Below are positions 21,055-57,339 of a stretch of 59,431 nucleotides of DNA, one piece after another. The stretch is from Planctomycetota bacterium (GTDB lineage: Bacteria; Planctomycetota; Planctomycetia; Gemmatales; Gemmataceae), in assembly GCA_021413735.1 (NCBI GenBank), contig JAIOPV010000221.1, forward strand, positions 1 through 59,431, read 5' to 3'. The first letter of the stretch is position 1. Every line of letters starts with the position of its first letter. The notes beneath the pieces were generated by a model. The model made no database searches and was not told the origin of the DNA. It was given only the letters and a program-made list of their open reading frames with translations. Both the position numbers and the translations under genes were made by a program.

Positions 21055-21103
21055 TTCCTCCGGGCGAGGATGACCGATTCCACATCGCCGGGCGTGGTTC
21101 CGG
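21055..21103 (+). promoter_or_regulatory. Degenerate TTCCGG box array upstream of the epimerase element
   Basis: Boxes TTCCTC at 21055, TTCCAC at 21078 and TTCCGG at 21098 are 20-23 bp apart. The last is set in GGTTCCGGACGTGT, nearly the same context as a box at 57018. They lie just after the phosphoesterase stop. Confidence 0.4.
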
Positions 21104-21172
21104 ACGTGTTTTCGGTTCTCGTGAAGCAATAATTTCGACGCAAGTCACATCCAGATTACGTTTTGCAAACAC

Positions 21173-21245
21173 TCTGATATAGTTTCTTCCGGACAGATAA
21201 AATGGTTCCGGGGAGGGGTGTGCATGTCGTCCGGAACCAATGAGA
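21173..21245 (+). promoter_or_regulatory. Conserved leader element, copy 1 (upstream of epimerase gene)
   Basis: The 5' part TCTGATATAG is followed by TTTCTTCCGGAC at 21183-21194. A perfect 9-bp stem, TGGTTCCGG (21203-21211) with CCGGAACCA (21231-21239), encloses a 19-nt G-rich loop. The stem differs from copies 2 and 3, with changes on both sides. It ends 123 bp before the epimerase ATG. A possible sigma70-like promoter (TTGAAT, 18 bp, TACACT) lies downstream at about 21288-21317. Confidence 0.65.
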
Positions 21246-21362
21246 ACCAACCAGAGCCTTGACTTTCAGCGAGAGTTGAACCCCGCTTGAATTGGTTTGT
21301 CCAGCGGGTGTACACTCCGCAATTCCAGGCAAGAACTTCTCGACACCTACGGACTCCTGCTC

Positions 21363-22328: not shown

Positions 22329-22378
22329 TTTGCCGCTTGCGGCGTAGCGAGCGAGAGCGCTACGCCGCAAGCGGCAAA
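22329..22378. terminator. Perfect long hairpin, family B palindrome
   Basis: Arms 22329-22349 and 22358-22378 pair over 21 bp and share the GCCGCTTGCGGCGTAGCG core with 12265-12308. The hairpin lies between the convergent stops of the epimerase and hom genes. It is flanked by T and A runs, as expected for a two-way terminator. Confidence 0.8.
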
Positions 22379-22392
22379 TCCAGAGTCCCTTG

Positions 22393-23769
22393 TCAGTCGC
22401 CCATGCTGAAGAACACCGCCGGCGCGGCGACGGTTGCCAGAGCGTTGATCTTCTTCAGCGCAGTCTTGAAGCGGCCCGTTTCGGCGTAGTGCGTCACGAT
22501 CACGAGCGGAACGGGACTGCCGCCGCTCTCGGCCGCTTCGTGCTGAACCACGCTCGAAATGCTGATCTCTTCGTCGGCCAGAATGCGAGTCACGTCCGCC
22601 AGCACGCCCGGCTTGTCCGCAACCAGAAGTCGCAGATAGAAGCGACTTCGCACTCGCTCCGCTGGCTCGATCGCGAAGCCTTTATTTGCCGTCGACCACA
22701 ACTGCGCTGCCGCGAACGTTCGTTGTGCCCGACCGACCGCAATGTCGATGATGTCCGCGACGACAGAACTCGCGGTCGGACCGCGACCCGCTCCAGGCCC
22801 CTGGTAAAGCGTCTCACCGACGATGTCGCCGTGAACGAGAATCGCGTTGTAAGCGCCGCGTACTTGCGCCAGCAAGTCGGTGTGCCGCAGCAACACGGGC
22901 GCGACGTGTAACGCCACCCAGTTTAAGGCGGAAGGCGGAAGGCGGAAGGCGGAATCTGTCTCGTCTTTTCCGCCTTCTGCCTTCCGCCTTCCGCCTTCGC
23001 CTGAGGTCCACGCTTCCGCGAGCAGCTTGATCGTGTACCCCAACTCGTCCGCGAAACGGATATCCATTGCGTCGAGGGTGTCGATGCCCTGACGTTGGAT
23101 CTCGTGCGGTCGTGCCGCAACACCGAACGCAATCTGCGCGAGCACCGCGAGCTTGTGAGCAGCGTCGGACCCGTCCACGTCGAGCGTTGGATCGGCTTCG
23201 GCATAGCCCAGCTTTTGAGCCTCAGCGAGCGCAACCGCGTAACTCATGCCTCGCTCAGCCATCGCCGTCAGGATGAAGTTCGACGTGCCATTGAGAATGC
23301 CCTGGATCGCCGTCACCTGATTGGCCGCGAGGCTTTCGCCCAGCGCCCGGATGATCGGCACACCACCCGCCACAGCCGCTTCAAAGCAGACGCAGCGTTC
23401 GGCCTTGCGAGCAGCCTCGAAGAGTTCGTGACCGGCATCCGCGAGCAACGCCTTGTTCGCCGTGACGACGTGCTTCCCGGCAGCGAGAGCGTCGAGAACG
23501 ACCTTCTTCGCGGTGGTGGTGCCGCCAATCAGCTCAACGACAACGTGAACCGTCGGATCGTGGATTGCCGCTGCGTGATCGGTTGAGATGAGTTCTTTCG
23601 GGATCGCTGAGTCGCGGAGCTTGCTCGTGTCGCGAACGACAACGCGACGGAGTGCGATGGGCCGACCCGAGCGGCTGGCAAGGCGATCTTTGTGGCGAAG
23701 GAGGATGTCGGCGACGCCACCTCCGACGGTGCCGCAGCCGATGAGTGCAATACCAAGCGTGTCAAGCAT
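22393..23769 (-). CDS. hom: Homoserine dehydrogenase with ACT domain and an in-frame repeat insert
   Basis: 458 aa. The NAD(P) motif IALIGCGTVGGGVADIL is at the start. ELIGGTTTA and the catalytic-domain block GILNGTSNFIL ... YAEADPTLDVDGSDAAHK follow. The C-terminal ACT domain (FYLRLLVADKPGVLADVTRIL) suggests feedback control by threonine. The enzyme reduces aspartate semialdehyde to homoserine. Residues of about 257-283 come from a palindromic repeat at 22925-22998 and have no counterpart in the family. They lie in the catalytic part, so they are probably a tolerated surface loop. No thr genes are adjacent. Confidence 0.93.
   Translation of the reverse strand: MLDTLGIALIGCGTVGGGVADILLRHKDRLASRSGRPIALRRVVVRDTSKLRDSAIPKELISTDHAAAIHDPTVHVVVELIGGTTTAKKVVLDALAAGKHVVTANKALLADAGHELFEAARKAERCVCFEAAVAGGVPIIRALGESLAANQVTAIQGILNGTSNFILTAMAERGMSYAVALAEAQKLGYAEADPTLDVDGSDAAHKLAVLAQIAFGVAARPHEIQRQGIDTLDAMDIRFADELGYTIKLLAEAWTSGEGGRRKAEGGKDETDSAFRLPPSALNWVALHVAPVLLRHTDLLAQVRGAYNAILVHGDIVGETLYQGPGAGRGPTASSVVADIIDIAVGRAQRTFAAAQLWSTANKGFAIEPAERVRSRFYLRLLVADKPGVLADVTRILADEEISISSVVQHEAAESGGSPVPLVIVTHYAETGRFKTALKKINALATVAAPAVFFSMGD
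22925..22998. repeat. Palindromic repeat inserted in frame in hom
   Basis: Left arm: GGCGGAA units repeated four times. Right arm: TTCCGCC units inverted. They are separated by about 20 bp (TCTGTCTCGTC). The element reads through in the hom frame as a Gly/Arg/Lys/Ser-rich stretch without a stop. Confidence 0.9.
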
Positions 23770-44118: not shown

Positions 44119-44211
44119 CGGTTCCAACGTCAGCTCATCAGGTATGCGTTGAACAACGCAAGCTAATTGCCCAAGCAGAGATGTGTTTCACGAGCAATGC
44201 GTCACCGATGT

Positions 44212-44305
44212 TCTGATGGAATTTCTTCCGGACTTGTATGGGCGATTCCGGACTTCAGAACGTTTCCGGATGTGGGGTGTGGGTGTCGGCCGGAAACGAT
44301 GAGAG
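44212..44305 (+). promoter_or_regulatory. Conserved leader element, copy 2 (upstream of WD40 kinase)
   Basis: TTCTGATGGAATTTCTTCCG is followed by boxes TTCCGG at 44226, 44246 and 44264. The perfect stem CGTTTCCGG (44261-44269) pairs with CCGGAAACG (44290-44298) around a 20-nt loop rich in G (TGTGGGGTGTGGGTGTC). Compared with copy 1, the outer stem bases change on both sides. It ends 154 bp before the kinase ATG, or 124 bp before an in-frame TTG. Confidence 0.65.
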
Positions 44306-56978: not shown

Positions 56979-57043
56979 TTCCGGGTACTCCATTTGGTTC
57001 CGCACGCGACCGGATGATTCCGGACGTGTCCAGATGGTTCCGG
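56979..57043 (+). promoter_or_regulatory. Array of four TTCCGG-type boxes at 19-20 bp spacing
   Basis: Boxes at 56979 (TTCCGG), 56998 (TTCCGC), 57018 (TTCCGG) and 57038 (TTCCGG), 19 to 20 bp apart, starting right after the ggt stop. A spacing of two helical turns would put all boxes on one face of DNA. The function is unknown. Confidence 0.5.
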
Positions 57044-57139
57044 AGGTGGATTTTCAGGACATCTGCGTGCGCGTTTTGAATCGAATTCGCAACATACGAT
57101 TGGTAAATGAGTTGCGTCAGAAGCGATTCGTTCGGCTTG

Positions 57140-57235
57140 TCTGAACGATATTTCTTCCGGACGAATGGGATGGTTCCGGGTCTGGAATGCTTGGTTCCGG
57201 AAGTGGGGTGGGGAGGTAGCCCGGAATCAATGTGC
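57140..57235 (+). promoter_or_regulatory. Conserved leader element, copy 3 (upstream of rplU)
   Basis: TCTGAACGATATTTCTTCCG is followed by boxes at 57155, 57174 and 57195. The stem TTGGTTCCGG (57191-57200) pairs with CCGGAATCAA (57221-57230) over ten pairs with one G-U, around a 20-nt loop (AAGTGGGGTGGGGAGGTAGC). It ends 109 bp before the rplU ATG. Confidence 0.65.
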
Positions 57236-57339
57236 TCGACTTCCTTGAAGCGAGTTTCTGGCGTTCCTACTGGTCGCCTTTTGTCGCTCCGCTATCATGA
57301 CAGTCTTATTTGTGCGTCACGCTTTTGAGTTGGGTCACC

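What the first reader, a model, noticed from the sequence alone, without database searches (positions are those of the whole stretch)
21173..21245. Conserved hairpin element upstream of the epimerase gene, recurring at 44212 and 57140, with covarying stem
The same layout occurs three times: (T)TCTGA, TTTCTTCCGGAC, a GG(T)TTCCGG arm, a 19-20-nt G-rich loop (TGGGGTG core) and a CCGGAA arm, then ATG within a few bases. The arms are TGGTTCCGG/CCGGAACCA, CGTTTCCGG/CCGGAAACG and TTGGTTCCGG/CCGGAATCAA, so bases change together on both sides. That is the mark of a conserved RNA (or cruciform) structure. All three lie 105-155 bp upstream of a gene start, before unrelated genes (epimerase, WD40 kinase, rplU). 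I know no named RNA family with this layout.
Basis: partly seen in the sequence, partly recalled or inferred. Interest (0 to 1): 0.85.

Follow-up and report, generated by a model that had tools for sequence, protein, structure and literature searches.

The report
Dispersed modular intergenic repeat, REP/BOX-like
The hairpin is not a private switch of three genes but one part of a short, modular, mobile-looking DNA repeat present in well over a hundred copies between the genes of this planctomycete, of a kind known in other bacteria but with an unusually regular two-helical-turn layout and no identified mover.

Summary
The three copies are real, but they belong to a dispersed repeat. The genome holds 132 exact matches to the left half and at least 150 to a model of the hairpin. 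All 140 copies examined lie between genes. The unit is modular: a left end (ATGTTCTGATnnAG-TTTCTTCCGGAC), usually zero to seven further TTCCGG modules 19-21 bp apart, then the hairpin and often AATGAGAA. Left end and hairpin are a multiple of about 20.5 bp apart in 122 of 127 copies. It is patchy: abundant here and in one congener, present in one Fimbriiglobus MAG, no hit in 16 of 18 congeners. Upstream of rplU it occurs in 1 of 17 genomes with the gene, upstream of the epimerase in 2 of 13, so it is no conserved leader of these genes. The covariation claim largely fails: the pair it rests on shows no association across three genomes (p=0.82); two other pairs do covary. The RNA folds no better than shuffles. 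Best reading: a new non-autonomous interspersed repeat family resembling REP/BIME and BOX elements. None of 28 Y1 (RAYT-type) transposase genes found is flanked by it; its mover is unknown.

The parts
21169..21246 (+). Copy 1 of the repeat, from left boundary (CACTCTGATATAG) to AATGAGAA
   Evidence: boundary at -14 from TTTC
21183..21194 (+). Left-end motif TTTCTTCCGGAC
21203..21239 (+). Right hairpin TGGTTCCGG-N19-CCGGAACCA
21096..21115 (+). Upstream module GGTTCCGGACGTGTTTTCGG; its TTCCGG lies 85 bp before the left end. A matching module at 84-85 bp is found in 12 of 102 own copies
   Evidence: also in the congener
44208..44305 (+). Copy 2 of the repeat (one extra TTCCGG module)
44262..44297 (+). 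Right hairpin of copy 2, GTTTCCGG-N20-CCGGAAAC
57137..57236 (+). Copy 3 of the repeat (one extra TTCCGG module)
57193..57228 (+). Right hairpin of copy 3, GGTTCCGG-N20-CCGGAATC
56979..57053 (+). Upstream TTCCGG array of the copy-3 composite (TTCCGG at 56979, 57018, 57038; the last 113 bp before the left end); begins right after the upstream stop codon

Best explanation
A family of short, non-autonomous interspersed repeats (roughly 75-250 bp) that spreads between genes, analogous to BOX and REP/BIME elements. Anatomy (shown): a fixed left end, a tandem array of TTCCGG modules two helical turns apart, and a terminal hairpin in which the last module meets an inverted copy, often ending AATGAGAA. 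Spread (shown): high copy number, intergenic, patchy between related species, absent from several orthologous sites. Mechanism (inferred): an unidentified trans-acting transposase recognises the ends and perhaps the phased TTCCGG array, in double-stranded or folded single-stranded form; module number changes by slippage or recombination; copies survive where they break neither genes nor promoters. Effects on neighbouring transcripts (stability, termination) are possible but untested.
For: 132 exact matches in the genome, 0 of the reversed pattern; at least 150 hairpin-model hits here and 100 in one congener. 140 of 140 HMM hits intergenic although 83% of the sampled DNA is called coding. Sharp left boundary 14 bp before TTTC. 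Left end to hairpin within 2 bp of a multiple of 20.5 in 122 of 127 copies, 31 expected from a uniform spread; 2-9 exact TTCCGG in 125 of 127. Patchy: exact pattern in 5 of 95 family genomes, own included, two of the five single chance-like hits. Sites occupied in one species and empty in the other: rplU in the congener, L019/L120, L057/L117 in both directions. In Fimbriiglobus (G063) compact copies with the same ends but another loop; of the 13 hairpins there that face a gene's 3' end, 11 lie within 24 bp of it. No Rfam match at the element.
Against: No target-site duplication seen and no mover found: none of 28 Y1_Tnp genes found in the three genomes is flanked by it. Two sites are shared with the congener, and at 21173 the element looks better conserved than its intergenic surroundings, which may mean selection. 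In tandem gene gaps 65 copies point with the genes and 22 against, more than random insertion would give. One of 24 G063 copies (L233) was placed inside a called ORF. The empty sites are between species about 79% identical, so single insertion events are not resolved to the base; the L057 gap is some 650 bp and holds other sequence too.
Confidence: 0.82

Rival explanations
1. Operator or architectural sites: the phased TTCCGG array is a binding platform for a DNA-binding protein (global regulator or nucleoid protein) and the copies are kept as its regulon.
For: 19-21 bp spacing, two helical turns, in 293 of 299 successive intervals; orientation bias 65:22 in tandem gaps and a median of 145 bp from the right end to the start codon; in the congener the ortholog of copy 1 has TTCCAG for TTCCGG in left end, arm and inverted arm together, and looks better conserved than its surroundings.
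Against: Absent at the orthologous rplU of 16 of 16 other genomes and at the epimerase of 11 of 12; unrelated neighbours; 35 of 138 copies with a called right neighbour face a gene's 3' end, and 13 of 24 in Fimbriiglobus do; gap types much as in the genome at large; no orientation bias in G008 or G063, small numbers.
Confidence: 0.12
2. REP element proper (REPIN/BIME) moved by a RAYT or by a class 3 Y1 transposase, whose structures are described as having a CnGA foot (the left end here holds CTGA).
For: Intergenic, palindromic, high copy, near stop codons in Fimbriiglobus; GTAG repeats are reported from the PVC superphylum (PMC3733652, passages); class 3 Y1 enzymes are described mainly from Planctomycetes with atypical CnGA-footed structures in high copy (PMC6006769, passages); class-3-like genes occur in these genomes (my reading of the motifs).
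Against: None of the 28 Y1 genes found is flanked by the element; the nearest copy is about 1.3 kb away. Of the ten whose flanks I printed, most carry their own, different palindromes by eye. The CTGA is not at the foot of the hairpin. Y1 genes weaker than E=0.001, or with flanks cut by contig ends, were not seen.
Confidence: 0.12
3. Conserved structured RNA: a transcribed cis- or trans-acting RNA element.
For: Co-variation at stem pair 9 (T-A/C-G, p=2e-7) and core pair 2 (p=0.004) over 139 copies from three genomes, uncorrected for ancestry; on 89 own copies only 2 of 500 shuffles reach the percentage paired, 9 the covariation score and 13 the two-sided changes; orientation bias.
Against: Pair 7, on which the claim rested, does not co-vary (p=0.82); the numbers of pairs and pair types are reached by 158 and 104 of 500 shuffles; the four copies of 140 with a changed core arm have only one arm changed; fold z-scores of the window copies +0.04 to -1.7; loop sequence not conserved across genera.
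Confidence: 0.06

Closest known systems
BOX elements of Streptococcus pneumoniae
   Same: Short interspersed repeat with fixed ends (boxA, boxC) around a variable number of tandem inner modules (boxB), many copies, foldable (PMC3049150, passages)
   Different: Inner module here is 19-21 bp and phased to two helical turns; TIR and target duplications are reported for BOX, while here only a weak TTCTGAT/ATGAGAA inverted repeat and no duplication were seen; I made no sequence comparison with BOX and no search for an IS with similar ends
REP / BIME / REPIN elements with RAYT transposases
   Same: High-copy intergenic palindromes, often just after stop codons (clear in Fimbriiglobus)
   Different: No GTAG or CGTC tag at the foot of the hairpin; none of the Y1 transposase genes found is flanked by it; larger and modular
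Class 3 TnpA-Y1-associated structures (CnGA foot)
   Same: Planctomycetes, high copy, CTGA in the left end
   Different: The class-3-like genes of these genomes are flanked by other repeats (by eye); the CTGA is roughly 27 nt or more from the hairpin arm

Membership tests
Small interspersed (MITE/BOX-like) repeat | Many similar non-coding copies between genes | tested here: met
Small interspersed (MITE/BOX-like) repeat | Presence/absence at orthologous sites | tested here: met
   two sites shared between species
Small interspersed (MITE/BOX-like) repeat | Terminal inverted repeats | tested here: inconclusive
   only TTCTGAT versus ATGAGAA (TTCTCAT), read by eye
Small interspersed (MITE/BOX-like) repeat | Target-site duplication | tested here: inconclusive
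   none seen by eye in the flanks; no closely related empty site available
REP | GTAG or CGTC tag at the foot of the palindrome | tested here: not met
   hairpin foot reads GATGG/CCAAT in consensus; GTAG-like letters stand before TTTC at the left end only
REP | Cognate RAYT gene flanked by the repeat | tested here: not met
   0 of 28 Y1_Tnp genes found at E<=0.001 in G000 (11), G008 (7), G063 (10); some flanks cut by contig ends
Structured RNA family | Compensatory changes throughout the stem | tested here: not met
   only pairs 2 and 9 associated
Structured RNA family | Match to an Rfam family | tested here: not met
Structured RNA family | Transcription | not testable with these tools
   no RNA-seq

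The most novel reading that the evidence does not exclude
The repeat is a double-stranded recognition platform, with TTCCGG sites phased every two helical turns and closed by an inverted copy, read by an unknown transposase or site-specific host protein that has carried the family between at least two Gemmataceae genera: a modular mobile repeat outside both the RAYT and the IS/MITE schemes.
Probability: 0.3. Interest if true: 0.65.

Novelty: new variant of a known kind. Interest (0 to 1): 0.45.

Why it matters
It turns a supposed riboswitch-like leader into a genome-wide repeat family, with coordinates in three genomes. The strict two-turn phasing and the lack of an adjacent Y1 transposase pose a concrete question: what protein reads and moves it. 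Such repeats can alter transcript ends and promoters, and these may also break MAG assemblies (copies lie at the ends of contigs C76, C143 and C197).

Tried and rejected
RAYT as mover: the Y1_Tnp (PF01797) matches of G000 (11), G008 (7) and G063 (10) were searched for the element in their flanks; none is flanked, the nearest copy is about 1.3 kb away in G008 C15.

Outward promoter at the right flank: among 67 hairpins with a codirectional right neighbour TTGAC recurs at 20-24 (19), 30-34 (10) and 40-44 (9) bases after the hairpin, about 0.2 expected per bin. In the copies I inspected by eye I saw no matching -10 at the usual distance, and TTGAC also follows hairpins that face a gene's 3' end. 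I read it as part of extended flank families: six of the ten flank patterns occur only with the element (B_down 12 of 12, D_down 2 of 2, L2 15 of 15, L3 5 of 5, L4 4 of 4, L5 11 of 11), C_down 7 of 8, A_down 6 of 9; the loose patterns L1 (8 of 15) and B2 (22 of 48) also match elsewhere.

Autonomous copy with a gene inside: five pairs of hairpins 0.3-4.5 kb apart enclose one to three called genes each; only the gene in L035 was identified, a DUF1501 protein. Viral spread: 1 chance-like hit in the viral contigs. Of its hits I printed eleven: the four Fimbriiglobus and two DS2.012 ones show the element, the five others (L141, L145, L151, L152, L196) do not; the rest were not inspected. G-quadruplex: the loop G-runs are not conserved in Fimbriiglobus. 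The fold of the G063 stretch missed the 3' arm and is not used.

Limits and dropped rows: one search scored 150 candidates per genome, so 150 for G000 is a floor and the zeros mean none among 150 candidates. The single hits in G018 and two in G065 are low-scoring and were not recovered by motif. Of 92 hairpin references 89 were aligned (L007:7851, L042:3281 and L084:4975 left out as modules or chance). Those 92 required exact TTCCGG and CCGGAA, so 'core never varies' is by selection; without that rule 136 of 140 are exact. One of 25 G063 rows (L212:1404) was dropped as chance; the same spurious row is one of the four -+. The G008 hairpin set is 26, against 100 model hits; the G008 and G063 sets were picked with a motif tolerating one change, so their core conservation is biased. 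The 140 own copies come from stretches chosen because they hold copies, plus four 20-kb stretches (L085-L088) where one search lists none and searches found none; a laxer motif gave one hit in L088. The element list is lax (155 own, with both-strand doubles), so I use only its rows checked; it also lists copies in L035 and L268 without an element at the matching place in the other species, and L080/L261, which I could not resolve.

Full report
Observation. The three hairpins exist as described. TTTCTTCCGGAC occurs exactly three times in the window, each time in front of the hairpin. The genes downstream are an NAD-dependent epimerase, a protein kinase with WD40 repeats and ribosomal protein L21.

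A genome-wide family. The pattern TTTCTTCCGGAC-N(0-30)-TTCCGG has 70 forward and 62 reverse matches in the genome of the window and none for the reversed control. A covariance model of the hairpin, built from 89 copies, reports 150 matches, which is the number of candidates scored, so at least 150. I fetched 1.37 Mb of this genome, mostly around copies; an HMM finds 140 hairpins there, 131 with a left end nearby.

Anatomy. The left end starts sharply 14 bp before TTTC with the consensus ATGTTCTGATnnAG. From the left TTCCGG to the hairpin arm the distance is 19-21 bp (28 copies), 38-41 (52), 59-61 (34), 80-81 (3), 101 (1), 121-122 (6) or 142-162 (3), 127 copies in all; 122 of 127 lie within 2 bp of a multiple of 20.5. 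Successive TTCCGG are 19, 20 or 21 bp apart in 293 of 299 intervals. The hairpin core is exact in 136 of 140 copies; the four others each have one arm changed and the other not. Some copies have a further module upstream, 84-85 bp (12 of 102), 113 bp (4) or 106 bp (1) before the left end. Several flank families travel with the element. This is a mosaic, modular repeat.

Place. With my own simple gene caller (83% of the DNA coding), 140 of 140 copies are intergenic. Gap types are 65 ++, 22 --, 36 divergent, 13 convergent and 4 with one neighbour missing. In tandem gaps the hairpin points with the genes more often (65:22, p=4e-6). The right end is a median of 145 bp from a start codon (103 copies) but 42 bp from a 3' end (35 copies). 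In the congener G008 the counts are ++ 5, -- 6, -+ 7, +- 4; in G063 ++ 6, -- 5, +- 6, -+ 4 (one of them spurious), three with a neighbour missing and one (L233) inside a called ORF. The orientation bias is thus not seen there, with small numbers.

Relatives. Of 95 family genomes, exact matches occur in G000 (130 with the tighter pattern used there), G008 (23), G063 (6) and singly in two others, where the matched letters do not resemble the element. The hairpin model gives 100 hits in G008, 24 in G063, 2 in G065, 1 in G018 and none in 16 other congeners among the 150 candidates scored in each. G063 copies are compact and uniform: nearly the same left end (mostly TTTCTTCCGGCC), one spacer, the same stem and CAATGAGAG end, but mostly a GGGGTCCCCCCACCC loop.

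Orthologous sites. Within 420 bp upstream of rplU the element is present in the window genome only, 1 of 17 genomes with the gene (19 examined). Upstream of the epimerase it is present in G000 and G008, 2 of 13 (19 examined). At rplU in G008 the stretch between the upstream stop codon and rplU is about 110 bp against 361 bp here (counted by eye), and the promoter-like block ending CTATCATGACAG or similar lies downstream of the insertion in the window genome, G008 and G013. That these are promoters is my reading; the consensus scan at copy 1 lists only a site inside the element. Other sites occupied in one species and empty in the other are L019/L120 and L057/L117, the latter both ways. Two sites are shared, window 21173 with L132 and L121 with L255, the second with a different module number. 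At 21173 the element looks better conserved than the rest of the intergenic region, so selection or gene conversion on some copies is possible.

Covariation. On 89 own copies, six core pairs never vary (by selection of the copies) and pair 5-38 is broken in 20. Of 500 shuffles, 2 reach the percentage paired, 9 the covariation score and 13 the number of two-sided changes, but 158 and 104 reach the numbers of pairs and pair types. These p-values ignore shared ancestry. The orthologous copy in G008 carries two compensated pairs. A hairpin or symmetric DNA site may thus be under constraint, but the evidence is thin and does not separate RNA from DNA. Folding of the window copies gives z-scores from +0.04 to -1.7. 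Rfam has no match at the element.

Mover. Y1 transposases are common here: 11 matches in G000, 7 in G008, 10 in G063. None has the element at its flank. Of the ten whose flanks I printed, mostly the weaker and class-3-like matches, most show their own unrelated palindromes by eye, as in REPtrons. PMC6006769 (passages read) describes class 3 Y1 enzymes in Planctomycetes with CnGA-footed structures. The CTGA in the left end made this a good lead, but adjacency does not bear it out.

Comparison and novelty. It is built most like pneumococcal BOX (PMC3049150, passages) and is placed much like REP/BIME elements (PMC3733652, passages). It lacks the REP tag and a cognate gene among those found; a sequence comparison with BOX or named REP families was not made. 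Searches of the paper library for Gemmata, Fimbriiglobus, Planctomycetes or Gemmataceae with repeat terms, and for the motif itself, listed no paper whose title or abstract describes this family (listings only, apart from the passages named); the library lacks most subscription papers. I file it as a new variant of a known kind, with an open question about what reads the phased array.

Noticed in passing
22329-22378: A 50-bp inverted repeat with 21-bp arms (TTTGCCGCTTGCGGCGTAGCG...CGCTACGCCGCAAGCGGCAAA) just after the epimerase gene; similar stretches hit in several congeners, some on both strands: an ordinary REP-like repeat.
   Followed up: partly
22925-22997: GGCGGAA repeats facing their inverted copies, recurring on both strands in several congeners.
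   Followed up: no
L106, L109, L111, L113, L115, L274-L278: Y1 transposase genes, several class-3-like, most flanked by their own distinct palindromes by eye: several separate REPtron-like arrangements in these genomes.
   Followed up: partly
L015, L017, L054, L076, L077: Tandem composites of two left ends exactly 107 bp apart with a similar spacer, suggesting a larger compound form of the repeat.
   Followed up: partly
L042, L083, L109 (contigs C143, C197, C76): Copies lie at contig ends of the assembly, so the repeat may break short-read assembly.
   Followed up: no
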